Positions 909-19,717 of a DNA stretch of 41,699 nucleotides are shown piece by piece. How positions within the stretch are numbered: position 1 is the stretch's first letter; each line of letters starts with the position of its first letter. The notes beneath the pieces were generated by a model. It did no database searches and was not told the origin of the DNA. It was given only the letters and a program-made list of their open reading frames with translations. The DNA is taken from the NCBI GenBank assembly GCA_903643075.1, contig CAHJWT010000001.1:1-41699 (forward strand), in the 5' to 3' direction. The DNA comes from Sphingomonadaceae bacterium. Its GTDB lineage: Bacteria; Pseudomonadota; Alphaproteobacteria; Sphingomonadales; Sphingomonadaceae. The translations under genes were made by a program, and so were the position numbers.

Positions 909-1199
909 TCAGCGCGAGGCGAACTGCGCGGGCGGGGCGGGGACATGCGCCATGGCACCGGAGACGGCGTCACGGAAGCAGCGGATAGCGTCGGCGCGCG
1001 ACCCTAGGTCCTGACGCTCGCTGCTGTTGCACAGACGGCGGGCGGTGGTGACGATCCGGTTCTTCAGCGTCGCCTGGCCGGCGGCGGTGTTCAGGCTGAG
1101 ATCGCCGTAGAAGACCTTGGCGGTCGGGGCGGTCTGTGCCTGCGCCGACGTCGCGGCGATGGCGGTCAGAGCGAAAGCGGTGGCGAGGAGGATCTTCAT
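909..1199 (-). CDS. UrcA-family periplasmic protein (copy 1)
   Basis: This is a 96-residue secreted protein. It begins MKILLATAFALTAIAATSAQAQ, a signal peptide with a likely cut after AQA. The mature part carries the UrcA-family pattern VFYGDLSLNTAAGQATLKNR, then two Cys (LCNSS and IRCFRDAV) that probably form a disulfide, and ends AQFASR. UrcA was named for a uranium-responsive gene of Caulobacter; the molecular function of the family is unknown. The ATG at 1199 has AGGGA upstream. A second copy at 8859-9143 shares the signal peptide style, the YxDL strand, the two Cys and the same last residues QFASR. The gene is divergent from the cyclase at 1440 and has a CRP-type palindrome 80 bp upstream. 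Confidence 0.88.
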   Translation of the reverse strand: MKILLATAFALTAIAATSAQAQTAPTAKVFYGDLSLNTAAGQATLKNRIVTTARRLCNSSERQDLGSRADAIRCFRDAVSGAMAHVPAPPAQFASR

Positions 1200-1252: not shown

Positions 1253-1295
1253 TATCTAGAAGCAGCCCCGATCGACGGCTGTGACGTCCGTCACA
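1253..1295 (-). promoter_or_regulatory. CRP-type operator and candidate promoter of UrcA copy 1
   Basis: TGTGACGTCCGTCACA at 1280-1295 is a perfect TGTGA-N6-TCACA palindrome, the consensus bound by E. coli CRP. On the minus strand a TAGATA -10-like hexamer lies at 1258-1253. With a start about six bases further on, the palindrome would be centred near -41, the class II activator position. The same arrangement occurs before UrcA copy 2. The site also lies in the divergent region in front of the cyclase gene and could act on both. The palindrome is directly visible; the promoter position is inference. Confidence 0.65.
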
Positions 1296-1421
1296 CGATT
1301 TAAGGATGACGAGCGACGGGAAGTGCGTTCGCTCCGGTAGGTCTGCACCGGCGATGTTTCAGCAAAGGCAAGCGTGCCCGCAGTGGCGAGAGTGCGCTTA
1401 TGCTGGAAGTCAACCCCGTCG

Positions 1422-1427
1422 TATAGT
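1422..1427 (+). promoter_or_regulatory. TATAGT -10-like element close to the cyclase start
   Basis: TATAGT sits 12 bases before the ATG at 1440. If used as a -10 box the transcript would have a leader of only about six bases. This fits the lack of a recognisable ribosome-binding site before that ATG. No convincing -35 box was seen. It could equally serve no promoter. Confidence 0.25.
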
Positions 1428-1439
1428 AAACGCCGCGGC

Positions 1440-4400
1440 ATGTATCAGCAACTCGCCTCTGCGATCGCGGCGCCGGCATTAGCCAGCGATCGGCGCCAGG
1501 TGTCGGTGCTGTTCGCGGACATGGTCGGTTTCACCGAGGCGGTCGAGCAGATCGGCGAAGAACAGGCGCTGAAGCTGGTGCGCATGATCTATGATCGGCT
1601 GAGCGCCGCCGTCGAGGCCCATGGCGGCTCGCCGCGCGGCTTCGCCGGCGACGGCATCATCGCTCTTTTCGGCGTCCCCGATGCGCAGGAGGACGCCGCC
1701 TTGCGCGCCTGTCGCGCCGCGGAGTTGATTCGGGCAACCTTCGCGGCGGCCGGCGACGCCTTCGTTGCGGCGTTCGGCATCCGCCCGACGATGCGGGTGG
1801 GCATCTGCTCCGGCATCGTCGTCATGGCCGCGGTGGAGGGCGACGGCTCGGCACCGACGGCGGTGGGCGACACCGTCAATGTCGCCTCGCGGCTGCAGGC
1901 CCTGGCGCCACCGGGCGGCTGCCTGATCTGCGACCGCACGCGGCGGCTGGTCGAATGGCTCGTCGAGACGAGCTTCGACGGCGAGCACGCGATCAAGGGC
2001 AAGGCCAGGCCGCAGAAGCTGTGGCGGCTGCAGGCCGTTCGCGAGGGCGCGCGTCGTTTCGATGCGTCGCGGCAGCGCGGGCTGACGCCTTATGTCGGAC
2101 GCGAGGCGGAGCTGACGGCGCTCCGCGAGGCCGTCGACCGCGCCCACGGCGACCTCCAGGTGATCGATGTCGTCGCTGAAGCCGGGCTGGGCAAGACGCG
2201 CCTGATCTTCGAGTTCCTCGAGGGCCTGAAAGGCGGCGGTGCCGTCGTTCTCATCGGCAACTGCGCCGCCGACGGGCGCAAGACACCCTATCTGCCGTTC
2301 ATCGAGGTCATCCGCGCCGCCTTCCGCCTCGACGCCGACCTCGAGGCGGACGTGGTCAAGCGGCGGATCGAGGTCGGACTGGCCGGCTTCGACCTGCTGA
2401 CGGACGAGAATGTCGGGTTGCTGCTCAACCTGCTCGGCATGGCACCGCCACGCGGATCGTTGACCGGACTCGACAGCGTGCTCATCGGTCTGCGCACCCG
2501 CGATCTTCTGCCGGCACTGTTACAGGCGCGGTCGAGGCGCGGGCTGGTCGTTCTACTGATCGAGGATGGCCACTGGATCGATCCGGCTTCGGAGGGTCTG
2601 CTCAAGGCACTGGTCAAGACGATCATTCCGCCGAACCTGCTCATTCTCCACACCCGCCGACCGGAATATGCCCCGCCGTGGCTCGACAGCGGTCCTTGCC
2701 GCACGCTGGCGTTGAAGCCGCTCGACCCCGCCGAGGTGAAGCAACTTGCGGAAACGCGGCTCGGCAGCCAACTCCCCGATGCTCTGCTTCGCCAGGTCAC
2801 CGAGCGCGCGGGGGGCAACCCGCTGTTCGGCGAGGAGATCCTGCGCTTTCTGATCGAACAGGGGAGATTGCGAGTGGGTACGGACCAGGTCGAGTTCAAC
2901 GCCGGGTCGGGTGACGACGATCTTCCCGATAGCATTCAGCTGCTTCTGGCCGCCCGTATGGACGGTCTGGCAAGCGAGGACCGCCGCGTGCTGCAGGCGG
3001 CGGCAGCGATCGGCCGCCGTTTCGACCTCGCGCTGCTGGAGTTGCTCGGCGGGTGGGAGAGCGACCTCGACAACATGCTCCACCGGCTGGAAGCGCAGGA
3101 CTTCATCGCCCGCGAGGGCGAGTCGACCAATTACGTCTTCAAGCACATCCTGGTCCGCGACGTTGTGTACCAGAGCCTGCTGACCGAGCAGCGCGCCGCG
3201 CTCCACCTGCGCATCGCCGAAACGCTTGAGGCCCGCAATGCCGGGCGGGTCGCCGAGGTCGTCGAGTCGCTCGCCTATCACTACGGATTGTCCGACCGGC
3301 GCGACCGCGCCTTCACCTACCTGACCATGGCCGGCGCGCGCAGCGTCAGCGTCTTCTCGCTCGATGCCGCCGACCGCTACTTCGCCGCCGCGCTCAAGCT
3401 CTACGAAAGCGATCCGCACTGTGCGAGCGACGATGGCTTCGGCACGCTCGCCGCCCGCTATGCCCAGTGCTGCAACATCGGTCTGCGCCTGAAGACGTTC
3501 GCCCATCTTTCCACCTCGGCGCTGCGGGTGTTCGCGCGCCTTGGCGACAGTGCCGACCACGTTTCCTTCCTGCATCATTATGTCTTCAGCCTGATCTGGG
3601 GCGGCCGTTACCGCGACGCGCTTCGCGTGCAGCAGGATCTGACGGCGATGGCGCGCCGGCGCGGCGATCCCTGCTCGATCGCCTTCGCTGCCGTCAGCGA
3701 GCTCGCGGTCTCGACCTACTGCGCGGCAAAGCCCGTGGCCGAGTTCCAGGCACGGCAGCGCGAGGCGGAGGCGGCGCTGGCGAGCATCGACGACGCCAAC
3801 CTGACCAACCTCTATTATTCGATCTCGGCCTACGACGAACTGTGTCGGGGCCGGATCGCCGAGGCCCGCGCGTCGGTCGAGCGGCTTGTCGCCTTCGCCA
3901 CTTCGATCAACGATCCGCGCGGCCTCGGCTACGGACTTGCCATGGAGGCGCTGATCGCGATGCAGGCCGACGAGTTCGGCCAGGCGCTGACGCTGGCGGA
4001 GCGCGCTCGCGACATCGCGCGGGCGGAGTTCGAGAAGGTCCTCGCCACGACCGCGAGGATTTCCGTGCTCGTGCCGCTGGGCCGCCTAGAAGCGGAGCGG
4101 GACGTGCGGTCATGGATCGGCCTGTGCAACGACAACGACTGGAAGCTGTTCACCGTCGGTCCCGAGTGCTGGCTGGGCGTCGCGCAGGCAATGAACGGCC
4201 GGGTGGGCGACGGGCTGCGCACGCTCGAGGCCGCGATCGCCAGCCGTGACCGCGAAGGCTTCCTGCCGGCGGCGGACTGGTCGCGCCTGTACCTGTGCGA
4301 GGTCTACCTCGCCGTCCTGTCGGCGCGCGCGAGCGGCTCGCCCCGGCCGCCCCTCCGCGACCTGCCGCTGCTGATCGGCATCCGGCTGTTCGGTGCCCGC

Positions 4401-4622
4401 CGGATCAAGGCGCTGGTGGCGCGGGTGCGTGCCAACCCGCAGTTCGCCGTCGATGGACAATATTTCGGCCGGACCGCCCTGATCCTGGGATCGCTCTACA
4501 AGCTGCGGAAGCGGCGACGGCTCGCCGCCCGTCACCTCGACGAGGCGCGCCGCGTCTTCCAGGCGACCGGTCCCTCGGCGCTGCTGACGCGGATCGAGAC
4601 CGCCCTCGCCGAAGTCAGCTGA
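1440..4622 (+). CDS. Class III adenylate/guanylate cyclase fused to AAA-type ATPase
   Basis: The protein is about 1060 residues. Residues 19-195 form a class III nucleotide cyclase domain. The metal-binding Asp are D27 in LFADMVGFTE and D71 in GFAGDGIIALFG, and the GDTVNVASRL segment supplies the transition-state Asn and Arg. A P-loop ATPase follows, with Walker A EAGLGKTR near residue 250 and Walker B VVLLIEDGHW near 375. The rest is an alpha-helical, TPR-like region that ends in helical pairs rich in Ala, Leu and Arg. This cyclase/STAND-like layout is common in alphaproteobacteria and suggests a cytoplasmic sensor that makes cAMP or cGMP. The ATG at 1440 (MYQQLAS) is preferred because the domain starts soon after; an ATG at 1374 in the same frame would add 22 residues. 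The gene is divergent from UrcA copy 1 and near a Crp-type regulator gene. Confidence 0.88.
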   Translation: MYQQLASAIAAPALASDRRQVSVLFADMVGFTEAVEQIGEEQALKLVRMIYDRLSAAVEAHGGSPRGFAGDGIIALFGVPDAQEDAALRACRAAELIRATFAAAGDAFVAAFGIRPTMRVGICSGIVVMAAVEGDGSAPTAVGDTVNVASRLQALAPPGGCLICDRTRRLVEWLVETSFDGEHAIKGKARPQKLWRLQAVREGARRFDASRQRGLTPYVGREAELTALREAVDRAHGDLQVIDVVAEAGLGKTRLIFEFLEGLKGGGAVVLIGNCAADGRKTPYLPFIEVIRAAFRLDADLEADVVKRRIEVGLAGFDLLTDENVGLLLNLLGMAPPRGSLTGLDSVLIGLRTRDLLPALLQARSRRGLVVLLIEDGHWIDPASEGLLKALVKTIIPPNLLILHTRRPEYAPPWLDSGPCRTLALKPLDPAEVKQLAETRLGSQLPDALLRQVTERAGGNPLFGEEILRFLIEQGRLRVGTDQVEFNAGSGDDDLPDSIQLLLAARMDGLASEDRRVLQAAAAIGRRFDLALLELLGGWESDLDNMLHRLEAQDFIAREGESTNYVFKHILVRDVVYQSLLTEQRAALHLRIAETLEARNAGRVAEVVESLAYHYGLSDRRDRAFTYLTMAGARSVSVFSLDAADRYFAAALKLYESDPHCASDDGFGTLAARYAQCCNIGLRLKTFAHLSTSALRVFARLGDSADHVSFLHHYVFSLIWGGRYRDALRVQQDLTAMARRRGDPCSIAFAAVSELAVSTYCAAKPVAEFQARQREAEAALASIDDANLTNLYYSISAYDELCRGRIAEARASVERLVAFATSINDPRGLGYGLAMEALIAMQADEFGQALTLAERARDIARAEFEKVLATTARISVLVPLGRLEAERDVRSWIGLCNDNDWKLFTVGPECWLGVAQAMNGRVGDGLRTLEAAIASRDREGFLPAADWSRLYLCEVYLAVLSARASGSPRPPLRDLPLLIGIRLFGARRIKALVARVRANPQFAVDGQYFGRTALILGSLYKLRKRRRLAARHLDEARRVFQATGPSALLTRIETALAEVS

Positions 4623-4651
4623 CGGGCGGCAGCTTCAGCACCGGTGCGCTC

Positions 4652-6106
4652 TTAGCCCGGCAGCGCCGCGAGATAGTCGATCGCCGCGAGGCTCGGCAGG
4701 AAGGTGTACGAACCGCCTCGCGTCGTCACGAAGCGGGGAAACCCACGCAGGTGATGGTACAAGCCATCGGCCAGACGCAGGTCGAATACGCTCATTTCCG
4801 GTGTATTCGTGCCGATCAGGGGATCGTTGATCCCGGTCACGTCGGGATTGCTCAGCCCGAGGTTGAGCCAATCGGACATCACCGCCTCGTATTGCGCGCC
4901 GAGGCTGGCGCAAAGGAAGTTGCCGAGCAGCCCGCGTTCCCGGTCGTCGGGCTGCGCGGCGTCGAAATCGGGGCCGTAGGGCGTGCCGCGACGAACCAGC
5001 TGCCGCGCATAGTTGGCGTTACGCTGGACGATCATGCCATCGCGCGGGTTGACGCGCCGGATATGGGCCCCCGCCGGACACGTCGTCGCGCCGCGATAGT
5101 CGAAGTCGTTGAACGCCTTCCGCGATCCCGCCGGCAGCGGATGGAACGGCGATACGGCGACCGGGGTGCCGTTCCGCCACCGCCCGCACATCTGTGCCGC
5201 CACGGCTTCGCGCAGGGCACCGAGCCGGTCGATCGGCCGGTCGAACGAAGCCTCGGCGTCGACCGGGAGCAGCGGCGGCCCTCCCGCCTGTTCGAGCCGC
5301 AGCAACGCCTCGCCGGCATCGTCGAGGTAGGCCTCGAACGCGGACACGTCCTGCGCCATGACGCGGAAGGCGTTGAACGCCCCGTCGCGGCCCAGCTCGT
5401 CGCTCAGCGGCACCCGGAAGAAGACGCCCTCGAGCTGCGTCGGGTAGCCGAGCAGGACGGTTCCGAGCGGCTGGAGCGGCCGGGTCGAACTGCTCCCAGC
5501 GTGGCCGTCGACGGCGAAGCGCGGCTGAGCGATGCTGTCGGCATAGCCGAAGAACACGCGCCTGGCCGGGAGGTTATCCCCGTCGCGGTCGCTGCCCAGC
5601 ACGTCGCGTTCGGTGCGGGCGCGGCCGTCGCGGACGCCGAGCACATCGAAGGCGCGGCTCGCCGCCGCTTGCATCGCGTCGAGTGTCCCGGGGCTGTTCG
5701 CATAGCCGGTGGCGACGAGATGGATGCGGTCCGGCCGGTCGAACGGGGCCGGCCAATTCGCCGGTGCGCTGTCGCCGATGTCGCCGAGCTTGACCGCGCG
5801 CTCGGCCATGCCCTCGACGAACTCGCGCGGGAAGGTCGCCAGCATCGCCTCCGCTACCCCCAGCGCGCGCAGCCCCGCGTGCGTGAGCCCGATGTTGAAG
5901 CAGGCCGGAGGGTCCGCTGCGCCCCAGTGCGGGGCGCGCGTGATGGCCGGCACGTCGACCGAACCCCCCCTGCTCGCCGCGGCGAGGAAACGTCGGGCGG
6001 CGGCGGGGTCGGCCACCGCGAGCATCATATGGCGGACATGGCGCAGACCGCCGCGGTAGCCGCGCAGGATGTTGCCCTGCACGTTGTCGAGGCGGACCTC
6101 GCTCAC
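4652..6106 (-). CDS. DyP-type heme peroxidase
   Basis: This 484-residue protein starts VRLDNVQGNILRGY, typical of the large, non-secreted class of dye-decolorizing peroxidases. The proximal heme histidine is in CPAGAHIRRVNPRD near residue 347. The catalytic GxxDG motif appears as GYADS near residue 187, with the Asp kept but the last Gly replaced by Ser. No Tat or Sec signal is present, so the enzyme is probably cytoplasmic or exported with a partner. It is the last gene of a three-gene minus-strand group with a catalase-like protein and an unknown protein; its start overlaps the stop of the upstream gene by four bases (ATGA). The likely reaction is H2O2-dependent oxidation of an unknown substrate. 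It converges with the cyclase gene. Confidence 0.85.
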   Translation of the reverse strand: MSEVRLDNVQGNILRGYRGGLRHVRHMMLAVADPAAARRFLAAASRGGSVDVPAITRAPHWGAADPPACFNIGLTHAGLRALGVAEAMLATFPREFVEGMAERAVKLGDIGDSAPANWPAPFDRPDRIHLVATGYANSPGTLDAMQAAASRAFDVLGVRDGRARTERDVLGSDRDGDNLPARRVFFGYADSIAQPRFAVDGHAGSSSTRPLQPLGTVLLGYPTQLEGVFFRVPLSDELGRDGAFNAFRVMAQDVSAFEAYLDDAGEALLRLEQAGGPPLLPVDAEASFDRPIDRLGALREAVAAQMCGRWRNGTPVAVSPFHPLPAGSRKAFNDFDYRGATTCPAGAHIRRVNPRDGMIVQRNANYARQLVRRGTPYGPDFDAAQPDDRERGLLGNFLCASLGAQYEAVMSDWLNLGLSNPDVTGINDPLIGTNTPEMSVFDLRLADGLYHHLRGFPRFVTTRGGSYTFLPSLAAIDYLAALPG

Positions 6107-6816
6107 CAGCCGATCCCCAGCCGCTGGCGGATCTGCGCCGCCGAGAACCCCGCATAGCCGCGAAAGCCGCTGCCGAGGGAGACGTTGCGGTTGGCCCGCA
6201 GCTGCAGGATCACGGCACGCGGCAGGGCCGTCAGCGGCCGCGGGGAGCCATCGGCCGACGGTCGCCTCGCCGCGGCCTGCAGCGCGAACAGGTCGGTGGC
6301 GAAGTCGGGCAGCTGGAAGACGTCACGCGCATGGACCCAGGCGACGAACTTCTCGACGTTGCGCCGCGTCGGCACGACGTCGTCCGCATCCTCGATGAAC
6401 TGCAGCACCGCGTCGAAGACATTGCCGATCGAGACGATGAAATCGCGCACGTAACTGTCGAAGTCGCCGTCGTAGACCGACATCATGCACAGATTGTTGT
6501 CGACGATGACGAAACGCGCGAAGTGGATCGTCCCGACATTGTCGAGCCCGGTATAGAGCGCGTCGAGATTCTGGCCGATGGCCACCGCGACCCGCGCCCG
6601 CCCGATCGGCGTCTTCTCCTTCAACGGCATGATGAGGTTCATCATGCGTTGCAGTCCGTCGCCGGGCGCGGTGGCCGGCCGCGGACCGCCAGGCAGCCGG
6701 GGCGTCGGCTCGCGCCACGCCCATAAGGGCACCACGAGATGATTGCTGATAAACTTGAACCAGCCCCGGGTCGGCAGGCTGTCGACGAAGCGGTCGAGCC
6801 ATCCGCCGTCGGCCAT
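6103..6816 (-). CDS. Conserved protein of unknown function linked to DyP/catalase genes
   Basis: I do not recognise a named family. The ATG at 6816 (MADGGWLDRF) is chosen because it lies four bases after the stop of the catalase-like gene; an in-frame ATG 22 codons upstream would overlap that gene deeply. The 237-residue product has no signal peptide and no clear membrane span. Its centre reads GTIHFARFVIVDNNLCMMSV followed by YDGDFDSYVRDF, a beta-strand/helix pattern like a ferredoxin-fold domain that I associate with peroxidase neighbourhoods, although that link is from memory. The C-terminal part has basic segments and ends RLGIGW. Because it is tightly coupled on both sides, it probably works with the two heme enzymes, perhaps as substrate-binding partner or assembly factor. 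Confidence 0.65.
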   Translation of the reverse strand: MADGGWLDRFVDSLPTRGWFKFISNHLVVPLWAWREPTPRLPGGPRPATAPGDGLQRMMNLIMPLKEKTPIGRARVAVAIGQNLDALYTGLDNVGTIHFARFVIVDNNLCMMSVYDGDFDSYVRDFIVSIGNVFDAVLQFIEDADDVVPTRRNVEKFVAWVHARDVFQLPDFATDLFALQAAARRPSADGSPRPLTALPRAVILQLRANRNVSLGSGFRGYAGFSAAQIRQRLGIGW

Positions 6817-6820
6817 CGGC

Positions 6821-7861
6821 TCAGCCCCCGGCAAACGGACAGGGCGCGACACCGCGCCGCTGCTGGGAAAGATCGTATACATCGCCGCGGGCCCGGAGGA
6901 TCGGGTCGTCCGACAGCTCGATGCCCGGCGCGACGCGACACGGATTGAAGCTCAGCCGTTCGCACCCCGTCAGCTGGTCCTCGGCGACCCGGTCGACGGT
7001 CAGCGTGCCCATGAACACCCGGCGCCGCTGTACCGGCGACGCCTTGGTGGCATCCTCCAGCCTGTCGCCCACCTCGCCGAGGGTGAGCATCAGCGTGAAG
7101 CTCGCCGGACCGGCCGTCAGCCGCGTCCGTAGCTCATCGGCCAAGAACAGATTCTCCGGGGGGAGAGCCGGGTCCGTGTTGAGGACACCGAGCGTCGGCT
7201 GCCAGACGAAGCAACCGCAGCGGCGAACGCCGTCGGCGGAGGTGAGGATAAACGTATGGACCGCGTGATAGGCCGCCCGAACGAAGCTGACCGGTGTGCC
7301 GATCGTGGCGTCCTGGAAGACGGCCAGCTGGGCGAAATCATGGGCGTTGGCGAAGGCCTGGGCACCGGGGTCGGGGCTGACCGTCTCGCCGGGATAGGGG
7401 TCGCGCCGCGGCGGCTCGAGGTTCAACAGCGTGACGAACTTGCGCCACGGTGACTGGCGGACATAGGGCTGCGGGCGCGCCGCCACGGCGAAGTCGAGAA
7501 AGGTCTCGACCGACGGGGCGAAGAACTCCGGGAGCGTCATGGCCAGCAGATCGGATGCCGCCTCCTCGCCGTTGTCGCCGGTGCCGAGATGGAAGCGGAC
7601 GGCCAGGCCGCGCAGGTCCGACCAACCGTCGTGCTGCACGCCGCACCCCGAGCCGTTCGAGAAGCGCAGGGTGACCGGGACCGTGCCGCCGGTCCGGAAC
7701 TGCGCGGCGGCGCAATAATTGGCAGCGATATCGGAAGCCGCGAAGGTGCCCGACGCGCCGACGCCGAACGTGTGCACGGGACGGAGGCGCGCATCGGCGG
7801 GCGGACCGTCGGAACGACCCAGCGAGTCCAACAGTCGCCTTGCCGTCGACCAACCGTCCAC
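6821..7861 (-). CDS. Catalase-family heme protein (short catalase-related peroxidase type)
   Basis: At 346 residues it is shorter than a full catalase and close to the minimal catalase core. The distal histidine is H30 in RPVHTFGVGASGTF. The heme-pocket segment VTLRFSNGSG and the DLRGLAVRF strand follow. The proximal tyrosine is Y329, four residues after R325 in RARGDVYDLSQQRRG, the same Arg-to-Tyr spacing as in catalases. There is no signal peptide. The start is a GTG at 7861 with a strong AAGGGGG ribosome-binding site. It is the first gene of a three-gene group ending in a DyP peroxidase, so a role with peroxides or lipid hydroperoxides is likely. A TATACT hexamer on the minus strand at 7951-7946 could be the -10 box. 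Confidence 0.82.
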   Translation of the reverse strand: MDGWSTARRLLDSLGRSDGPPADARLRPVHTFGVGASGTFAASDIAANYCAAAQFRTGGTVPVTLRFSNGSGCGVQHDGWSDLRGLAVRFHLGTGDNGEEAASDLLAMTLPEFFAPSVETFLDFAVAARPQPYVRQSPWRKFVTLLNLEPPRRDPYPGETVSPDPGAQAFANAHDFAQLAVFQDATIGTPVSFVRAAYHAVHTFILTSADGVRRCGCFVWQPTLGVLNTDPALPPENLFLADELRTRLTAGPASFTLMLTLGEVGDRLEDATKASPVQRRRVFMGTLTVDRVAEDQLTGCERLSFNPCRVAPGIELSDDPILRARGDVYDLSQQRRGVAPCPFAGG

Positions 7862-8066
7862 GCCACCCCCTTGTGCTCGCGCCGCCGACGGCGACCCCGG
7901 CCGCCGTCCCGCATGGGCCTGTCTTTATCATTGAAGACCCGACCGAGTATACCAAGATGTTAACTTGCGGGTATCTGTCGCCGAGAGCCGCATGACTTCG
8001 CGACGTGCTTGCTCGATCGGGGTGTCCCGAGTCGCCCCGACCGGTGATCGCGGCGATGGGTCGAGC

Positions 8067-8729
8067 TCAATCGGCCAGCTGTGCCTCCCGCCGCAATGCC
8101 TCCGCATCGCAAATCTCGACACCGCGTGACCCGATGCCGACCCATCCCGCAGCCCGCCACGTCGACAGCCTGCGGTTGACGCTTTCGCGCGTCGTGCCGA
8201 TGATCCGGGCCAGGTCGGACTGGCTGCGCGTCTCGCGCCGGCCGCCGGCGAGAAGCAGGCGCGCGAGGCGCACCCCCGTGTCCGCGGCCGATGTTTCAAG
8301 CAGCCCGTTGGTCGACCGCAGGCGCTGGGCGAGCTGCGTCAGCAGGCCGAGCGCCGCCTCCGGCTCGGCGACCAGCGCGGCCCGCACCGCCTCACCGCCC
8401 AGGCGCAGCAGCACGCTCGTCCGCGTCGCCGTCACGTCGGCGCTGCGGCTGCCGCGGTCGAGAACGGCCATATCGCCGATGATCGCGCCGGGCTGGAGCC
8501 GGGCCAGCCACGTCTCGCCTCCGTCGGCGCGGCTCAGCCCGATCTCGAGCTCGCCGCTCAGCAGCAGATAGGCGGCGTCGCCGGCATCGCCGGCCGAAAA
8601 CAGCCGCGTACCGTGCGGCCGGCTCACCATGGTTCCCGTCGCCGCAAGGGTGCCACGTGCTCCCGCCGACAGGGCGCCGAAAACCGGGCTGCGGCCAAGC
8701 TGCTCCGTCCAGGTTTCGATGGTGCTCAC
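8067..8729 (-). CDS. Crp/Fnr-family transcription regulator, CRP-like
   Basis: The GTG at 8729 gives a 220-residue protein with GAGG upstream; a longer in-frame start at 8804 adds only a Pro/Arg-rich stretch. Residues 15-120 form a cyclic-nucleotide-binding domain with the phosphate cassette IGDMAVLDRGSRSADV. R95-S96-A97 match the cAMP-contacting Arg-Ser-Ala of E. coli CRP, and D86 replaces the usual Glu. No Fnr-type Cys cluster is seen. The C-terminal helix-turn-helix has recognition helix TTRESVNRR, in which R181, E182 and R186 occupy the places of CRP R180, E181 and R185 that read the TGTGA half-site. Perfect TGTGA-N6-TCACA sites occur before both UrcA genes in this window. It lies between the catalase group and UrcA copy 2, on the same strand. 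Confidence 0.85.
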   Translation of the reverse strand: MSTIETWTEQLGRSPVFGALSAGARGTLAATGTMVSRPHGTRLFSAGDAGDAAYLLLSGELEIGLSRADGGETWLARLQPGAIIGDMAVLDRGSRSADVTATRTSVLLRLGGEAVRAALVAEPEAALGLLTQLAQRLRSTNGLLETSAADTGVRLARLLLAGGRRETRSQSDLARIIGTTRESVNRRLSTWRAAGWVGIGSRGVEICDAEALRREAQLAD

Positions 8730-8807
8730 GGCTCGTTGCGCCTCGCCCGGCTTACCGCGGCGATCATGCCATAGCGGCGGTGGCGGCGACAACCGCAGGC
8801 GCACCGA

Positions 8808-8837
8808 CAGCGGGGTGGACGATGATCCACCCCGCTG
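8808..8837 (-). terminator. Hairpin downstream of the second UrcA gene
   Basis: CAGCGGGGTGGA and TCCACCCCGCTG form a perfect 12-bp stem around a six-base loop, about 21 bases past the stop of UrcA copy 2. A U-tract is missing. It separates that gene from the Crp-family gene downstream. Confidence 0.6.
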
Positions 8838-8858
8838 CCGTTCGTCGTGCGACGTGGT

Positions 8859-9143
8859 TCAGCGCGAGGCAAACTGCGGCGCCCGCTCGGGAACCCGGGT
8901 CATCGCGTCGGCGACCGCGCCGAGGACGCACTGGGCATAAGCGACGCGCATCTCGAGGTCCGTGCCGCCGGTGCCGCAGACGATCTTGGCGGCGCGCTCG
9001 ATGCGGCTCTTCAGCGTCTGCTGGCCGGCCGCGCCACCGAGGTTGAGGTCGGCGTACCGCACCGTCATCGTCGGCGAGGTTTGAGCCTGAACCGCGGGAG
9101 CGACGAGCGCGGCGGCGACGGCGGCGAGGATGAAAGTCTTCAT
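8859..9143 (-). CDS. UrcA-family periplasmic protein (copy 2)
   Basis: This 94-residue secreted protein starts MKTFILAAVAAALVAPAVQA, a signal peptide with a cut after QA. The mature part has VRYADLNLGGAAGQQTLKSR, two Cys (IVCGTG and AQCVLGAV) suited to a disulfide, and ends PQFASR. The ATG at 9143 is chosen because AGGGA lies upstream and the signal peptide follows directly; a longer frame back to 9347 has no such signal. It is a paralogue of the protein at 909-1199, with the same control region and a hairpin after each copy. The function of the UrcA family is not known; the name comes from uranium-induced expression in Caulobacter. Confidence 0.87.
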   Translation of the reverse strand: MKTFILAAVAAALVAPAVQAQTSPTMTVRYADLNLGGAAGQQTLKSRIERAAKIVCGTGGTDLEMRVAYAQCVLGAVADAMTRVPERAPQFASR

Positions 9144-9198
9144 GGCGGCTGTTCCCTTGGTGTCGACGGCCGGACAATTCCGCGCCGCGATATCCGTC

Positions 9199-9240
9199 TG
9201 ATAAGGGCAGGCCGCCGCGGCGGCTGTGACGCACGTCACA
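9199..9240 (-). promoter_or_regulatory. CRP-type operator and candidate promoter of UrcA copy 2
   Basis: TGTGACGCACGTCACA at 9225-9240 is a perfect TGTGA-N6-TCACA palindrome 81 bp before the ATG. A TTATCA -10-like hexamer on the minus strand at 9204-9199 would put the palindrome near -41. The flanks GGC before and GAT after are shared with the site at 1280-1295, which supports common control of both UrcA genes. Confidence 0.65.
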
Positions 9241-9552
9241 TGATCGTAGGTGTAAAAACGTAAGGCCGCCGACCACCCGCTGCCGCATTTCTTCCCACGA
9301 TCTGCTGCACCTCTGTCGATAAATCTCATGACTTCGCCTGCGATCAAGACAGTTGGCCAAACTGCTGTCCGTATCGCTGGACACGGTCGAACCGCACGAG
9401 CAATTCGAGGTCACCGGCCTCAGCCGGGCATTGCACGACGTTGTCGAACGATTGCCTCTCATCAATAACACTGCGGCTCGATTGCGAACGACGGGCTCTT
9501 GATAGGCAACCGTCGCGACGCTTAGACGTTTAGTGGTGAGGGGAGCACCTTC
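9241..9552. other. Intergenic stretch without a convincing gene
   Basis: Nothing certain is encoded here. One + strand frame, 9353-9502, reads LAKLLSVSLDTVEPHEQFEV then TGLSRALHDVVERLPLI and stops. It resembles the start of a polyketide-synthase acyl-carrier domain but lacks the GxDS phosphopantetheine site and has no start codon, so it is at best a remnant. The promoter of the gene at 9553 must lie near the right end. Confidence 0.3.
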
Positions 9553-10248
9553 ATGAGCGGAGCGGACAGCTGGCGGAGCGAACGTTCGGCGCAACTGGCG
9601 GGGACGCCGTTCGCCCGGCCAACGGCGATCGATCCGCTCGCGGTAACAGTGCCGATGATGGCGGCGTCAAAAGCCGCGCCGATGCCGGCCCGGCCCGGAG
9701 GTCGTCAGAATCGCCTGACTTGGTGGATCGTCGGGATCGTGGCCGCCGGTACGGTGATCGTCGCGCTGCTGGCTCGCGCCGGGCACCGGCCACCGACTTC
9801 TCAACCAGTCGTCGTCACCGCCCCGGCCAAAGTCGCAACGCCGCCTTTGGCCATGGTCGCGCCGCCGGTGGTTGCCGCCCCGCCGGCGATTGCCGCCCCG
9901 CGGGCAGACCCGGTCGCGACGCCATCGGTCGTTGCCGCTCCGCCGCACACACCGCCGACGACGCGCGCCATTGTGGCACCGCGGATACATCAATCGTCCG
10001 CGCGGACGGTTCGGCACCGTAACACCGTGACGACCCGGCATGCCGGACCTTCGTCGCGGGCTGTCGGCGGCAAGAGCCGAACAGCCCCAGCCAAGGTGGA
10101 AGAACGGATTGGCGCAATCTTGACAGCACCGGTGACTGCGACGCGACGGCCGTTACCGGTCTGCCAGCCACAGGTCTATGCCCGCGCACCGCGCCCATGC
10201 CGGCCATCGCACACGCGCATCGTCCGCAAGCCGTTTTTCTCGAAGTGA
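9553..10248 (+). CDS. Pro/Ala-rich single-pass membrane protein, function unknown
   Basis: I do not recognise a family. The ATG at 9553 is preceded by GAGGGGAGC, a strong ribosome-binding site, which supports a real gene. The 231-residue product has a cytoplasmic N-terminus of about 53 residues, one membrane helix near residues 55-75 (WWIVGIVAAGTVIVALLARA), then a low-complexity region rich in Pro, Ala and Val with several APP repeats, and a basic C-terminus with two Cys (PVCQPQ and RPCRPS). The layout suggests a periplasmic tether or spacer. It converges on pppA, the last gene of the T6SS cluster, with 56 bases between them. A link to secretion is possible but not shown by the sequence. Confidence 0.6.
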   Translation: MSGADSWRSERSAQLAGTPFARPTAIDPLAVTVPMMAASKAAPMPARPGGRQNRLTWWIVGIVAAGTVIVALLARAGHRPPTSQPVVVTAPAKVATPPLAMVAPPVVAAPPAIAAPRADPVATPSVVAAPPHTPPTTRAIVAPRIHQSSARTVRHRNTVTTRHAGPSSRAVGGKSRTAPAKVEERIGAILTAPVTATRRPLPVCQPQVYARAPRPCRPSHTRIVRKPFFSK

Positions 10249-10304
10249 GCCGCTAGCGGCTGGCGGGACGGCGAAAGTTCCTGTCACAATCCGCCGCCGG
10301 GTGG

Positions 10305-11075
10305 CTAACGCGATTGCAGGGCAGGATCGACGGTAATGTCGGCGTCGGCCGTGGCGTGGACGATGACCGCGGTGACATTGTCCTTCGCCCCGCGTGCGAG
10401 CGACAGCGCGATCAGGGCGTCGGCCGCCGCTCGCGGTGGGCGGCTGCGGACGAGATCGGCGATCTCGTCGTCGGCGACGGTATTGGTCAGGCCGTCCGAG
10501 CAGAGCAGGAAGATGTCGCCCGGCGCGATCGGTCCCTGATGCAGGTCGAGCGCGAGGCGGTCGTTGACGCCGACGGCACGAGTGATGATGTTCGACTTGC
10601 CGAACGCGGGCGCGTCGCGCCGCGACAAGGCACCCGAATCGAGCATTTCCTGGACCATCGAATGGTCGCGCGTGATCTGCTCGAAGGCTGCGGCACGGAG
10701 GAGATAGAGGCGGCTGTCGCCGGCCCAGAGGCAGGCGTAATGACCGGCATAGGCGATCAGCACGACGATGGTCGAGCCGATCACCGTGCCGGGACTGGCG
10801 ATCGCGGCATGGGCGACGAGCGTCCGGTTGACCCGCTCGACCGCGCCATGGACATCGTCGAGAAAGGCGTAGCCCGAATCGGGCGGTCCGATCGCGCCGA
10901 GCGCGTCGGCGAGCATGCCCGAGGCCACTTCGCCGGCCTGATGCCCGCCCATGCCGTCGGCGACGGCCCATAGGCCGATCTCGGGACGGTCGACGAAGCG
11001 GTCCTCGTTGAGCGCGCGCACCTTGCCGACGTCGGTCAGCGCCGCGCTGTCGAAGCGGACTGACCGCCCGGTCAT
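10305..11075 (-). CDS. pppA: PP2C-family Ser/Thr phosphatase of the T6SS (PppA)
   Basis: The 256-residue protein has the PP2C metal-binding motifs in order: LNEDRF near residue 23, WAVADGMGGHQAGEVAS near 36-52, GSTIVV, WAGDSRLYLLR, ITRDHSMVQEML, LLCSDGLTNTV and AKDNVTAVIV. These supply the Asp that hold the Mn/Mg ions. In T6SS clusters PppA removes phosphate from threonines modified by the PpkA-type kinase and so switches secretion off. Here a transmembrane kinase lies at the other end of the cluster and an FHA protein inside it. The ATG at 11075 overlaps the TGA of tagF by four bases (ATGA). This is the last gene of the T6SS run. Confidence 0.93.
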   Translation of the reverse strand: MTGRSVRFDSAALTDVGKVRALNEDRFVDRPEIGLWAVADGMGGHQAGEVASGMLADALGAIGPPDSGYAFLDDVHGAVERVNRTLVAHAAIASPGTVIGSTIVVLIAYAGHYACLWAGDSRLYLLRAAAFEQITRDHSMVQEMLDSGALSRRDAPAFGKSNIITRAVGVNDRLALDLHQGPIAPGDIFLLCSDGLTNTVADDEIADLVRSRPPRAAADALIALSLARGAKDNVTAVIVHATADADITVDPALQSR

Positions 11076-11665
11076 CGCGCCGTCTCGTCGGCCGACACCA
11101 GTCGATCGAACGCGTCGCCGGCAACAAGGCCGGCACTGCGCACCGCGGTCCGCTCGCCGCCGTGCAGCGACGGCCGCCACGTCGCCGTCGCCGGCTCGGG
11201 CATGGGCCGGACGGCGAAGGGTACGGCCGGGGTCAGGGTGGCGGCGCTGGCGCGGTCGGCGGCCTCGAGGGCCGCCTGGGTGGCATCGGCGGTCCAATAC
11301 CTGGCCCGTGCCGCCGTCAGCAGGGCTTCGGCCCGCGCACACCAATCGTCCCACGCGTCGGGCAACGGCTCGGGCAAGTCGATCGCCGCGTGCGGCGACA
11401 GCCGGACCGCGACGGCGACGTAGTCGCGGCCGACGCTGTCGCCGCTCGGTATCATCGCACCGAGCGCAAGCTGGCCATCGGCCAGCGCCGTCGACGCGAA
11501 GCGTAGCGGGGGTAGCGCGCGCATTGCCGCCGCCGGATCGGATGCCCGGCCGAACTCGCGCTGCAACCACGCGTCGAGCGTCGCCGCCACTGCCGGCGCC
11601 AACCCGCGGCGGACGAAATCGCCGTGCGCCGGAAGCTTGCCGACGAAGCCGACCGCTGTGCTCAC
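11072..11665 (-). CDS. tagF: T6SS-associated protein TagF
   Basis: The 197-residue product begins STAVGFVGKLPAHGDFVRRG, the hallmark N-terminus of the TagF/ImpM family (GxxGKLPxxGDFv.RgL). A GDSVGRDY segment near residue 70 and WDDWCARAEALL near 110 also fit. TagF acts as a post-translational repressor of T6SS in other bacteria, partly by holding the FHA protein. The GTG start at 11665 overlaps the stop of tssM as GTGA, and the gene's own stop overlaps the pppA start. In Pseudomonas aeruginosa and Agrobacterium TagF works beside the kinase/phosphatase pathway, all parts of which are encoded here. Confidence 0.9.
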   Translation of the reverse strand: MSTAVGFVGKLPAHGDFVRRGLAPAVAATLDAWLQREFGRASDPAAAMRALPPLRFASTALADGQLALGAMIPSGDSVGRDYVAVAVRLSPHAAIDLPEPLPDAWDDWCARAEALLTAARARYWTADATQAALEAADRASAATLTPAVPFAVRPMPEPATATWRPSLHGGERTAVRSAGLVAGDAFDRLVSADETAR

Positions 11666-14600
11666 AGCTTCACCGGACACTGAAACTTGGCCATGTCGAC
11701 GATGAACGGATTGTGGTCGATCGCCAGCTTGAGCTTGGCGTGGAGCGTGCCGTCGTCGATCGCCAGCGTCACGCCGTTCGGTGTGGCACTGCGCCCGCCG
11801 ATATCGTGCATCATGGCGACCAAGCCCCAGTCGCCGGGCCACGTCCGTGGTGGCGCCGGGGTCGGTGGCGCGGGAATCCGCTGGAAGCCGATTGATGCGG
11901 CCGGCGCGTTGCCGGGCCAGTGCAGTTCGACCGCGCGCGCGTCGCCTGCCCCGAACGTCGCCGGCAGGCCACCGACGGTCAAGGTGACCGACTGCGCACC
12001 CGTCAGTTGGGTCAGGTTGGCGGTGATGCGGATGTTGGGCTTGAGGTCGCCGGGGCGGAAGTAGGCGGCGGTGATTTTCGCGGCGTCCTGCAGCCGGTCG
12101 ACCGCCTTGGCATCGAGACCGATCGCCTTCCCCGCCGGGCTCGGCACCCAGTGCGCGCTGCTGGTATCGATCTGTCCCGCGAGCGTCGTCTTCTGGAAGG
12201 TGTCGATCAGCCCCGAAGGGCGGAACAGACGGCTGAAGTCGTCGATCGACACCTGCCTGAGCGGGCTGTTCGCGAACGGGTAGCCGCCCTTCACGATGGT
12301 CTGGCATTCGGGCAGCAACTCGGCTCCATACTGGCTCCGGACGGCTTCGCCCGCGGCATGATTTAGCTGCGTCGCCGAGGCCTTGACGAAGCCGGAGAAC
12401 AGCGCGCCGGCCTGCGGCGGCAGCGTCGACGTGACCGTGCCGAGCTTGGCCGTCGCCCCCATCGCCGCCGCCGCGCTCTGCTGCTGGAGCACCGGGCTAC
12501 CCATGTCGTGAGCCGCCGCCGCTGCGCCGCCGGTCGACCCGACATCGCCGAGCGCGGTGAGCGCCTGATCGAGCGGACCGGCCCCGCCGGCCGGGATCAT
12601 CTCGCGCAACCACGCGAAATGAGCGATGACCTCGTCAAGCGGACCCGGCGGGCCGGCTGGCTGCTGACCCATCTGGCTCTGCACCGACGTGGCCAGCGAC
12701 GCGCCGCGATAGATGCTTCGCGAGAACAGCCCGGCGACATTGAGATAGCCGCGCGTCGCCGACCCCTGCTTGAACGACGGCGGGGTCAGGTCGGTCTCGC
12801 TCGCCAGCGTATTGAACAGCGCGCGCACCGGCGATGGTGGCCGCGTCGCCAGTTCGATCCGGTCGCGGATCGGGCGTTCCCCGCTGACCGTGATGTCGTC
12901 GATCAGATTGTCCCAGCGGTTGGTGTAATCGGCGAGGTAGGCGGTCAGTAACGCATCCTTGATCCGGCCGACCCCGGCGGAGCCCGAGGGTCGCTCGCCG
13001 GTGACCCAGCCCTCGTCGGCCGACTGTGCGGCATAGCGGCCGACCGTCGGCACGACCACGGGGATGAAGTTGGCATGGCGATACATGCCCGGCACGCCCG
13101 ACGACAGTGGGGTACCCGACCGGCGGACGAACAGCCGCGAGTTGGCCAGACCGGGCACGTCGGTCAGGGCGAAAGGCGCGAGGTCGCGAAGCCGCTGGTC
13201 GGCGAGCATGCGGATATAAACGCGCTCGCCCGGTCCGAGGGTGCCGATCCGCGAACGCGCATCGGCGATCAATGTCGCGTTGAGCGGCGGCGGTGCCATC
13301 GGATTGGTCAGCAGCGTGGTGAGGTGCGCGCGCAACGCTGTCTTCACGTCGTCCTGCGCCGCTGCCGGATAGGCGTCGGCCCAACGGTCGACGAAGTAGG
13401 AATCGATCGCCGACCGCTCGAGCGGGGCGCCTGGCGCGCGGCCGAGCATGAGGTAGACGCGTAGTAGATTGTAGATCGCGGGGCGGGTATCGGCGGCGCG
13501 GCTGCCCGATCCCGCCGGGGGGTCGGCGGCAGCATCGAGCTTGGTCAGCTGCGCTTCGAGAGTGAGGAGCAGCCGCGGGAGGAACTGACGGTTGAGCAGG
13601 TTGACGTACGTCCCGTCGACTTCGGTGCGCAGCGCCGTCTCGCGCCCGATGCCCCAGCCAAATCCCGGCGAACGATCGTCCGGCGCGGCGGTCGACGCGA
13701 ACGGCAGGGCGCGGGCCTGGTTGAGCACCGCGAGCGGCTTCTGTGGATCGTCGTCGTCGACCGGCCCGCGGCCAAGACTGTCGGCGTCGCGGCGCAGTGT
13801 TTCGGCGCGCTGCTCGAGCCGGGTGATCAGCGCAGTGTTGCGCAGGTAGGCCAGCGTCCACAACGCGGTCAGCGCGACCGCTGCCGTCGCCGCGGTGCCG
13901 AGGACGGCGAGGCGGATGGACCGTCGGCGACGCTCGGCCTTGACGTCGCGGCCGGCGATCGCCGCCTCGGGAAACACGACGCGAGCGAGGAGGTCGTGGA
14001 GGAAATAGCTGCGCCCGCGCGTTTCGCCGCCGGGTGTCGTGGCCAGTGTGACCCCGATCCTCGCCGATAGGGCGGCAAGCAGCCGGTCGATCGGCCGGCC
14101 AAGTTGTGTCGCCGAAGACAGGTAGAAGCCGCGAACCAGCGGCGTGGGCTCGAACTTCGTTTCGCGAGCGATGATACGGAGCATCGCCACAAGCGGTTCG
14201 CGCAGTGTCGCGACCTGTTGTGGAAAGCCGAAGACCAGCCCGCGCCGCGCCATGTCGGGCTCGCCTTGGATCCGCAACAGCAGCCGCTCGTCGAGCCGGG
14301 CGATCAGCCCGTCGAACAGCCGGCCGGCGGCGGTATCGTCGACGGGGCTCTGGTTGCGGCCGGTGGCGAGATCGAAGGGGAAGGTTCCACCCCACACCTG
14401 CTCACGCTCCGATTGCGGCAGGTCGTCGAAGAACTCGTTGAACCCGGCCAGCAGATCGAGTTTGGTCAGGACGACATAGACCGGCACCTGGGTAGCAAAG
14501 CGGCTCTGCACCTCGTTGAGGCGTTGGCGGATCGCCCGGCCATGGGCCAACGCTGCCGCCTCGTCGGCCCCGATCAGCTCGGTCGTCGAAATGGCGACGA

Positions 14601-15270
14601 GGATGCCGGTGACCGGTTGGCGCGGCCGGTGCCGCTTGAGCAGGTCGAGCAGCGCCTCCCACGCCTTGGCATCGACCGCCGCATCGCTGTCCTGCGTCGT
14701 GTAGCGGCCGGCGGTATCGATCAGCACCGCCTTGTCGGTGAACCACCACTCGATCGTCCGCGTGCCGCCGATGCCGCGTACCGGCCCATCGCCGAGCGAC
14801 TGCGCAACCGGAAAATCGAGCCCGGCGTGTTGAAGCGCCGTGGTCTTGCCCGCACCCGGCGGGCCAATGATCAGATACCACGGCAGTTCGTAGATGAACG
14901 CTTTGGACTTGCCGATGCGCGTGGTCCTCATCAGCGCCAGCGCCTGCGCCGCGCGCTCGTTCATCGCGGCGGCGTCCTCGTCCGCGTCGCGGGCGGGCGG
15001 AGCCGCCGGAACGCCGGCCAAGTCATCGACCATCGCCCGGTTGCGCCGCGCCGTCCGCCAGCGACGGAAGCCCCATGCGCCGCCGGCGACGGCAATCAGC
15101 ACGAGGATGACGATCGCCCGCGTCAGCGGCCGGCCGAGGGGAACATGGCCGGCGATCGCCACCAGCGGCCCGACGAACCAGATCAGCAGCGCGACGGCGA
15201 CGAGGCCGAGCGCGATCAGCAGCCAGCGCGGCGGCCGCCGGGCGACGGCGTGGCGGATGCGGTACCACAT
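11662..15270 (-). CDS. tssM: T6SS membrane core protein TssM (IcmF family)
   Basis: This 1202-residue inner-membrane protein has two N-terminal helices (about residues 18-36 and 48-68), a cytoplasmic NTPase domain with Walker A GPPGAGKTT near 136 and Walker B AVLIDTAGRY near 180, and a third helix near 440-460. A long periplasmic region follows, including the IcmF-related domain and an all-beta C-terminus ending KFQCPVKL. TssM joins TssL in the membrane complex that anchors the baseplate. The P-loop is intact, so ATP binding or hydrolysis is likely kept. Its ATG shares one base with the tssL stop (TGATG), and its stop overlaps the tagF start. Confidence 0.96.
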   Translation of the reverse strand: MWYRIRHAVARRPPRWLLIALGLVAVALLIWFVGPLVAIAGHVPLGRPLTRAIVILVLIAVAGGAWGFRRWRTARRNRAMVDDLAGVPAAPPARDADEDAAAMNERAAQALALMRTTRIGKSKAFIYELPWYLIIGPPGAGKTTALQHAGLDFPVAQSLGDGPVRGIGGTRTIEWWFTDKAVLIDTAGRYTTQDSDAAVDAKAWEALLDLLKRHRPRQPVTGILVAISTTELIGADEAAALAHGRAIRQRLNEVQSRFATQVPVYVVLTKLDLLAGFNEFFDDLPQSEREQVWGGTFPFDLATGRNQSPVDDTAAGRLFDGLIARLDERLLLRIQGEPDMARRGLVFGFPQQVATLREPLVAMLRIIARETKFEPTPLVRGFYLSSATQLGRPIDRLLAALSARIGVTLATTPGGETRGRSYFLHDLLARVVFPEAAIAGRDVKAERRRRSIRLAVLGTAATAAVALTALWTLAYLRNTALITRLEQRAETLRRDADSLGRGPVDDDDPQKPLAVLNQARALPFASTAAPDDRSPGFGWGIGRETALRTEVDGTYVNLLNRQFLPRLLLTLEAQLTKLDAAADPPAGSGSRAADTRPAIYNLLRVYLMLGRAPGAPLERSAIDSYFVDRWADAYPAAAQDDVKTALRAHLTTLLTNPMAPPPLNATLIADARSRIGTLGPGERVYIRMLADQRLRDLAPFALTDVPGLANSRLFVRRSGTPLSSGVPGMYRHANFIPVVVPTVGRYAAQSADEGWVTGERPSGSAGVGRIKDALLTAYLADYTNRWDNLIDDITVSGERPIRDRIELATRPPSPVRALFNTLASETDLTPPSFKQGSATRGYLNVAGLFSRSIYRGASLATSVQSQMGQQPAGPPGPLDEVIAHFAWLREMIPAGGAGPLDQALTALGDVGSTGGAAAAAHDMGSPVLQQQSAAAAMGATAKLGTVTSTLPPQAGALFSGFVKASATQLNHAAGEAVRSQYGAELLPECQTIVKGGYPFANSPLRQVSIDDFSRLFRPSGLIDTFQKTTLAGQIDTSSAHWVPSPAGKAIGLDAKAVDRLQDAAKITAAYFRPGDLKPNIRITANLTQLTGAQSVTLTVGGLPATFGAGDARAVELHWPGNAPAASIGFQRIPAPPTPAPPRTWPGDWGLVAMMHDIGGRSATPNGVTLAIDDGTLHAKLKLAIDHNPFIVDMAKFQCPVKL

Positions 15271-19653: not shown

Positions 19654-19717
19654 CGTGTCCCCCACCCGCGTCCGGCCCGATCGCATCTATGCTGCACCCG
19701 CGGCCCGATCGGCAACT

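What the first reader, a model, noticed from the sequence alone, without database searches (positions are those of the whole stretch)
1253..9240. A possible local cAMP/CRP circuit: cyclase, CRP-like regulator and two UrcA genes with perfect CRP sites
Seen: TGTGA-N6-TCACA palindromes at 1280-1295 and 9225-9240, 80 and 81 bp before two paralogous UrcA genes, with shared flanking bases and a -10-like hexamer at matching distance in each. Seen: the Crp-family protein at 8067-8729 keeps Arg-Glu and Arg of the CRP recognition helix and the Arg-Ser-Ala of the cAMP pocket. Known: those residues read TGTGA and bind cAMP in E. coli CRP. Inferred: the class III cyclase divergent from UrcA copy 1 feeds this regulator, which acts from near -41 on both UrcA genes. 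CRP control of UrcA genes is not something I know to be described.
Basis: partly seen in the sequence, partly recalled or inferred. Interest (0 to 1): 0.72.

Follow-up and report, generated by a model that had tools for sequence, protein, structure and literature searches.

The report
CRP–UrcA regulatory module with conserved sites
A small group of soil and water bacteria keep a cyclic-nucleotide-sensing switch protein next to genes for tiny exported UrcA proteins, and its perfect DNA landing site stands in front of those genes in five genomes from two bacterial orders, so UrcA appears to be under cyclic-nucleotide control, which I did not find described.

Summary
The two perfect TGTGA-N6-TCACA palindromes are the only two in the 2.47 Mb assembly, and both lie 80-81 bp before UrcA genes. 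I searched by homology to the CRP-like protein, not by site, and found four more genomes with urcA directly before an orthologous crp: a second Polymorphobacter, another sphingomonad, Phenylobacterium aquaticum and another Caulobacteraceae member. In all four a perfect site precedes urcA. Across the five genomes (about 18.6 Mb) there are nine perfect sites, and seven stand 67-81 bp before UrcA starts. The flanks and the six spacer bases have diverged. Fifty UrcA genes in relatives without the module have no perfect site. Seven close CRP homologues without a neighbouring urcA have no site either. A TA-starting hexamer 21-22 bp after six of the seven sites fits a site centre near -41.5. A class III cyclase lies next to or near crp in four of five genomes, but its substrate residues are non-canonical, so cAMP (rather than cGMP) and the 'cyclase feeds CRP' step remain inferred. 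Binding and activation are untested. Best reading: a dedicated, nearly single-target CRP controlling UrcA; a new variant of a known kind.

The parts
1280..1295 (.). CRP-type palindrome 1 (TGTGACGTCCGTCACA), upstream of urcA copy 1 and between it and the divergent cyclase
9225..9240 (.). CRP-type palindrome 2 (TGTGACGCACGTCACA), upstream of urcA copy 2 and crp
1253..1258 (-). -10-like hexamer TAGATA, 21 bp after palindrome 1
9198..9203 (-). -10-like hexamer TATCAG, 21 bp after palindrome 2 (same hexamer at the same spacing in G002)
909..1199 (-). urcA copy 1 (TIGR04433, 96 aa, signal peptide, two Cys)
8859..9143 (-). urcA copy 2 (TIGR04433, 94 aa, Cys56/Cys72; AlphaFold2 two-helix hairpin)
8805..8840 (-). 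16-bp stem hairpin between urcA copy 2 and crp (possible attenuator or 3' stabiliser)
8067..8729 (-). crp-like regulator (cNMP_binding + HTH_Crp_2), GTG start; recognition helix TRESVNRRL; pocket G85 D86 R95 S96 T140 N141
1440..4622 (+). class III nucleotidyl cyclase fused to AAA_16 ATPase and long C-terminal region (alternative GTG start 1374)

Best explanation
The CRP-like protein at 8067-8729 is a dedicated, nearly single-target regulator. When loaded with a cyclic nucleotide it binds the TGTGAC-N4-GTCACA-type palindromes centred near -41.5 of the two urcA promoters and activates them in class II fashion. Read-through past a hairpin lets the 9225 site also serve crp (autoregulation). The class III cyclase encoded beside urcA copy 1 supplies the nucleotide, probably cAMP, possibly cGMP. 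Output: tiny exported disulfide-type UrcA proteins are made when the cyclase is active. Shown: anatomy, genome-wide uniqueness of the sites, conservation of site, distance and urcA-crp pairing over two orders, and co-variation of site with the crp-linked urcA. Inferred: binding, activation rather than repression, identity of the nucleotide, cyclase as its source, autoregulation. Unknown: the signal and what UrcA does.
For: 1) The own genome has exactly two perfect sites, both before UrcA. 2) Orthologous crp genes found by protein similarity lie behind urcA in G002 (Polymorphobacter, L131), G632 (L267), G440 (L256) and P. aquaticum (L140), each with a perfect site before urcA. 3) Genome-wide there are 9 perfect sites in the five module genomes, 7 of them at UrcA; G632, G440 and P. 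aquaticum each have one site in the whole genome, and it is this one. 4) Site-to-start distances are 80, 81, 79, 80, 78, 67 and 72 bp. Half-sites are 100% identical while flanks average 27-31% and the six spacer bases 43%. 5) A TA-starting hexamer lies 21-22 bp after six of seven sites. 6) In a supported CRP clade of 12 (98/98), the five with adjacent urcA have sites and the seven without urcA do not. 7) 0 of 50 UrcA genes in relatives without the module has a perfect site; the 7 sites in 15 control Caulobacteraceae genomes are on contigs without a UrcA match. 8) In the CRP-less congener G005 the aligned spot is degraded to TGAGAAGCTTGTTCACG. 9) The RE..R recognition helix is present in all five, and no other Crp-HTH protein of the own assembly has it. 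10) A class III cyclase is beside or near crp in four of five genomes.
Against: No binding, expression or nucleotide data. The window cyclase has Gly where adenylate cyclases have the substrate-specifying Lys (Thr is kept at the second position), and the G440 cyclase has His for the catalytic Asn. The four cyclases are only about 30-36% alike in the catalytic domain and differ in layout. G632 has no cyclase within about 10 kb. CRP Glu72 is Asp in the window protein, and Thr127/Ser128 vary (TN, VN, VD, AD). The third UrcA of the own genome has no site. In P. aquaticum the linked urcA has one in-frame stop. The G002 second urcA site abuts a sigma-54-like element, so activation there could work differently.
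Confidence: 0.72

Rival explanations
1. The regulator binds the same sites but represses urcA (or is a repressor released by a nucleotide), or works without any nucleotide.
For: A site overlapping the -35 region can also block RNA polymerase. Nucleotide-independent CRP relatives exist (DdrI of Deinococcus radiodurans is reported to bind DNA in a cAMP-independent way, PMC11253593). The G002 second site lies 8 bp from a sigma-54-like -24 element.
Against: Spacing of about -41.5 with a weak -10 and no good -35 is typical of class II activation (established knowledge of E. coli CRP). Phosphate-contacting Arg-Ser is conserved in all five, and a cyclase is usually nearby.
Confidence: 0.17
2. Another regulator, not the neighbouring CRP, reads the palindromes.
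For: The own assembly is 89% complete, and three other Crp-HTH proteins exist.
Against: Their recognition helices lack RE..R. Sites occur exactly in the genomes with this crp beside urcA. Sister sphingomonad CRPs carry the same palindrome (0-1 mismatch) 70-130 bp before their own starts in 9 of 27 loci, consistent with this family reading it.
Confidence: 0.06
3. Chance palindromes or shared ancestry without function.
For: About 0.6 perfect sites are expected in the genome by chance. urcA copy 2 and its G002 counterpart are related promoters.
Against: Conservation in five genomes of two orders with diverged flanks, 7 of 9 sites at UrcA (nominal P about 1e-25), and a gain on a different UrcA lineage in G002 at the same 80-bp distance.
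Confidence: 0.02
4. The CRP-urcA pair is real but the neighbouring class III cyclase is unrelated to it.
For: No cyclase near G632's copy. Cyclase types differ, and substrate residues are non-canonical.
Against: It is the only class III cyclase of the own assembly and is 3.4 kb from crp (about 0.8% chance to be within 10 kb). It is directly downstream on the same strand in G440 and overlapping crp in P. aquaticum.
Confidence: 0.3

Closest known systems
E. coli CRP-cAMP at class II promoters
   Same: Same palindrome TGTGA-N6-TCACA, RE..R recognition helix, site centre about -41.5
   Different: Here one to four perfect sites per genome and essentially one target family (UrcA), not a global regulator; crp sits with its target
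Mycobacterial/corynebacterial CRP (Rv3676) and GlxR
   Same: Best solved-structure sequence match (3d0s, 4.3e-24); Thr-Asn in the nucleotide-facing helix
   Different: Those are global regulators in Actinobacteria; about 90 bits only, so a distant relative rather than a demonstrated orthologue
Sinorhizobium meliloti Clr (cAMP/cGMP) with its class III cyclases
   Same: Alphaproteobacterial CRP-type regulator with class III cyclases; pocket G85, E86, R95, S96 and 140TT align with window G85, D86, R95, S96, T140, N141 (PMC10127613)
   Different: Clr reads HGTYHCNNNNGRWACA and has hundreds of ChIP peaks; targets are not UrcA
Caulobacter crescentus urcA under UzcRS
   Same: UrcA family periplasmic protein; activator site reported 43 or 53 bp upstream of the transcript start (PMC8963506)
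   Different: Two-component control through CATTAC-N6-TTAA, responsive to U/Zn/Cu; no match to that motif (up to 3 mismatches) lies between either window urcA start and 150 bp upstream

Membership tests
CRP/FNR superfamily, CRP-type | N-terminal cyclic-nucleotide domain plus C-terminal Crp HTH | tested here: met
   PF00027 64.6 bits and PF13545 51.2 bits, both above cut-off
CRP/FNR superfamily, CRP-type | RE..R recognition helix reading TGTGA | tested here: met
   TRESVNRRL; Arg-Glu and the following Asn-Arg in all five module CRPs
CRP/FNR superfamily, CRP-type | cAMP pocket Gly-Glu, Arg-Ser, Thr-Ser | tested here: inconclusive
   Gly, Arg, Ser kept; Glu is Asp in window, G002 and G632, Glu in both Caulobacteraceae; Thr-Ser is TN/VN/VD/AD
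CRP/FNR superfamily, CRP-type | Nucleotide-dependent DNA binding | not testable with these tools
   needs gel shift or calorimetry
E. coli CRP orthologue (NF008732) | Curated score 266 bits | tested here: not met
   43 bits: a CRP-type protein, not CRP itself
UrcA family (TIGR04433) | Curated cut-off 25 bits, signal peptide, two Cys | tested here: met
   70.4 and 72.7 bits; C56/C72
Class III nucleotidyl cyclase | Guanylate_cyc domain, two metal Asp, catalytic Asn and Arg | tested here: met
   PF00211 49.5 bits; FADMVG, AGDG, TVNVASR
Adenylate cyclase (substrate type) | Lys plus Asp/Thr adenine-specifying pair | tested here: not met
   Lys position is Gly (SPRGFAGDG); second position Thr kept; product cAMP or cGMP left open
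Class II CRP-dependent promoter | Site centre about -41.5 from a mapped transcript start | tested here: inconclusive
   Spacing to TA-starting hexamers fits in six of seven; no mapped start
UzcR-controlled urcA | CATTAC-N6-TTAA upstream | tested here: not met
   no match with up to 3 mismatches at 1200-1350 or 9144-9290

The most novel reading that the evidence does not exclude
A dedicated cyclic-nucleotide circuit with its own cyclase, its own CRP and essentially a single output, the exported UrcA proteins. It is carried as a compact site-urcA-crp-cyclase unit in Caulobacterales and Sphingomonadales, and the CRP has captured different UrcA paralogues at the same 80-bp geometry. UrcA would then be an envelope response under second-messenger control in some lineages and two-component control in others.
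Probability: 0.5. Interest if true: 0.62.

Novelty: new variant of a known kind. Interest (0 to 1): 0.55.

Why it matters
UrcA is a widespread family of small exported proteins with no known function, known mainly because Caulobacter urcA is strongly induced by uranium through UzcRS. Here an unrelated regulator type appears to control UrcA in several genomes. That gives a simple handle (added cAMP or cGMP, a crp or cyclase deletion) to switch UrcA on and off and look for its phenotype. It is also a compact example of a CRP with nearly one target, useful for studying how global regulators arise from or shrink to local ones.

Tried and rejected
Chance origin of the sites was rejected by comparison. 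Another Crp-HTH protein of the own genome as reader was rejected on recognition helix. UzcR-type control was rejected for lack of the motif. The window-wide scan with 2 mismatches gives fewer hits than shuffles, so only the perfect matches carry information. The Clr core GTNNCNNNNGNNAC matches the two sites but is at chance frequency in the window. The UrcA tree has few columns and cannot say how many times the site arose; an early version counted two genes twice and was redone. G002's other two perfect sites lie at a PEP-CTERM-type gene and near a comM-like gene with no UrcA nearby and were left unexplained. The AlphaFold2 model of UrcA (two-helix hairpin, pLDDT 83) was not searched against structures because such a hairpin matches too much. 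No promoter of the sigma-70 consensus was found at either urcA by the simple scan.

Full report
WHAT WAS CHECKED. The two palindromes are exact and at the stated places: 1280-1295 TGTGACGTCCGTCACA and 9225-9240 TGTGACGCACGTCACA. They lie 80 and 81 bp before the start codons of two UrcA genes (TIGR04433, 70 and 73 bits; cut-off 25). They are the only perfect matches in the 2.47 Mb, 328-contig, 89%-complete assembly; the reversed pattern has none. At both urcA genes the same layout recurs: site, 21 bp, a -10-like hexamer (TAGATA; TATCAG), leader, ATG. The assembly has three UrcA genes (the third, on C112, has no site), four Crp-HTH proteins above the family cut-off (a fifth, weak match on C21 is MarR-like), and one class III cyclase, the one in the window.

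THE REGULATOR. The 8067-8729 protein has a cyclic-nucleotide domain and a Crp HTH, and is nearest among solved structures to the mycobacterial CRP Rv3676. Its recognition helix TRESVNRRL keeps the Arg-Glu...Arg that reads TGTGA in E. coli CRP (established knowledge). In the pocket, Gly85, Arg95 and Ser96 are kept, Glu is Asp86, and Thr140-Asn141 take the place of CRP Thr127-Ser128. S. meliloti Clr, which accepts both cAMP and cGMP, uses G85, E86, R95, S96 and 140TT (PMC10127613). So nucleotide binding is likely, while the choice of cAMP or cGMP is open. None of the other Crp-HTH proteins of the assembly has an Arg-Glu...Arg helix.

REPLICATION IN OTHER GENOMES. I searched by similarity to the CRP, not by the site. 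In the congener G002 (a Polymorphobacter MAG, NZ_JANYGL010000008.1), L131 holds site 12447-12462, urcA 12074-12367(-) and crp 11212-11946(-, 69-70% identical). A class III cyclase-ATPase lies convergent at 7354-10554(+). In the sphingomonad G632 (complete, 4.43 Mb), L267 holds site 960, urcA, then crp 1492-2154 (62%). In Phenylobacterium aquaticum KACC 18306 (L140), site 9479 is followed by urcA 9567-9881 (one in-frame TAG), crp to 10657, and a class III cyclase from 10654, all on one strand. In the Caulobacteraceae genome G440 (L256), site 7269 is followed by urcA 6854-7201, crp about 6050-6733, and a class III cyclase-ATPase 2809-5958, all on one strand. G002 also has a second, different-lineage UrcA (C147) with a perfect site.

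GENOME-WIDE COUNTS. Perfect sites number 2 in the own genome, 4 in G002, and 1 each in G632, G440 and P. aquaticum: nine in about 18.6 Mb, seven of them at UrcA. The reversed-pattern control finds two in these five genomes. If the nine fell at random, seven or more within 200 bp upstream of the 15 UrcA genes would have a probability near 1e-25. Phylogenetic dependence makes that number nominal, but the flanks are unrecognisable (27-31% identity) while the half-sites are identical. Among 50 UrcA genes in relatives without the module none has a perfect site; the best are one-mismatch sites in G016 and G021. In 15 control Caulobacteraceae genomes seven perfect sites exist, none on a contig with a UrcA match. 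In the CRP tree, a clade of 12 (98/98) holds the five module CRPs and seven Caulobacteraceae CRPs without urcA; urcA adjacency and a site go together, 5 of 5 against 0 of 7.

GEOMETRY. Site-to-start distances are 80, 81, 79, 80, 78, 67 and 72 bp. A TA-starting hexamer begins 21-22 bp after six of the seven sites, which puts the centre at about -41.5, the class II position. The extended consensus is TGTGAC-N4-GTCACA in five of seven. In the second UrcA of G002 the site instead lies 8 bp before a TGGCAC..GC (GG-N10-GC, sigma-54-like) element that all five congeners share. In the CRP-less G005 the same spot reads TGAGAAGCTTGTTCACG. Strong hairpins of unrelated sequence separate urcA and crp in four of five genomes, compatible with high urcA and low crp expression from one promoter (inference).

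THE CYCLASE. It is a class III catalytic domain fused to an AAA ATPase. Metal-binding Asp, catalytic Asn and Arg are present, but the adenine-specifying Lys is Gly. Other module cyclases deviate differently: G002 keeps Lys, P. aquaticum keeps the Asp, and G440 has His for the Asn. Proximity in four of five genomes supports a functional link. The variety of cyclases and the absence near G632 keep this step at roughly two to one in favour.

MECHANISM, WITH STATUS. Shown by sequence: site, spacing, gene pairing, uniqueness, co-variation. Inferred: (a) the CRP binds the sites; (b) it activates urcA at -41.5; (c) a cyclic nucleotide is required; (d) the local cyclase makes it; (e) crp is autoregulated by read-through from the urcA promoter. 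My confidence falls from about 0.9 for (a) to about 0.55 for (d).

COMPARISON WITH WHAT IS KNOWN. It works like CRP at a class II promoter, but the regulator is not the E. coli CRP orthologue (43 bits against 266 required), and it has almost no other perfect sites. Caulobacter urcA, the named member of the family, is reported to be controlled by the UzcRS two-component system through CATTAC-N6-TTAA (PMC8963506); that motif is not found before the window genes. Searches of the held library gave no report of CRP control of UrcA. The founding papers of the UrcA field were not among the papers found there, so absence of a report is only moderate evidence.

VERDICT. It is a real, conserved regulatory module and a new variant of a known kind. 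Its main value is a testable handle on the unknown function of UrcA.

Noticed in passing
L062, L063, L065, L068, L073 upstream of the second UrcA lineage (own genome: contig C112, 3240-3452): All five Polymorphobacter orthologues share a TGGCAY-N-TGCA element (GG-N10-GC, sigma-54-like -24/-12) before this urcA; only G002 adds the CRP palindrome next to it.
   Followed up: partly
window 8805-8840; L131 about 12010-12040; L256 6734-6853; L267 1348-1491: Strong hairpins of unrelated sequence sit between urcA and crp in four of five genomes, the G440 one followed by a T-rich stretch: possible attenuator or terminator giving unequal expression.
   Followed up: partly
L272, L273, L275, L278, L279, L281, L282, L290, L294: Sister CRPs in other Sphingomonadaceae carry a TGTGA-N6-TCACA site (0-1 mismatch) about 70-130 bp before their own start, suggesting autoregulation in a related group.
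   Followed up: partly
L140 9567-9881: The crp-linked urcA of Phenylobacterium aquaticum has one in-frame TAG after the signal peptide; broken gene or sequencing error not decided.
   Followed up: no
window 4652-7861: Between cyclase and crp lie three overlapping minus-strand genes: a DyP-peroxidase-like protein, an unknown protein and a catalase-fold protein; no counterpart was found by BLAST in the G002 module region.
   Followed up: partly
window 10305-33446: A type VI secretion cluster judged from reading the translations (PP2C-type phosphatase, TssM-like 11662-15270, TssK-like 16703-18055, FHA protein 18055-19686, VgrG-like 19718-21361, ClpV-like 21947-24640, TssC-like 30293-31780, TssA-like 32316-33446), followed by a Ser/Thr kinase at 33530.
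   Followed up: no
L236 930-1172: In the alphaproteobacterium G162 a weak UrcA match sits before a more distant CRP-like gene but without a palindrome.
   Followed up: partly
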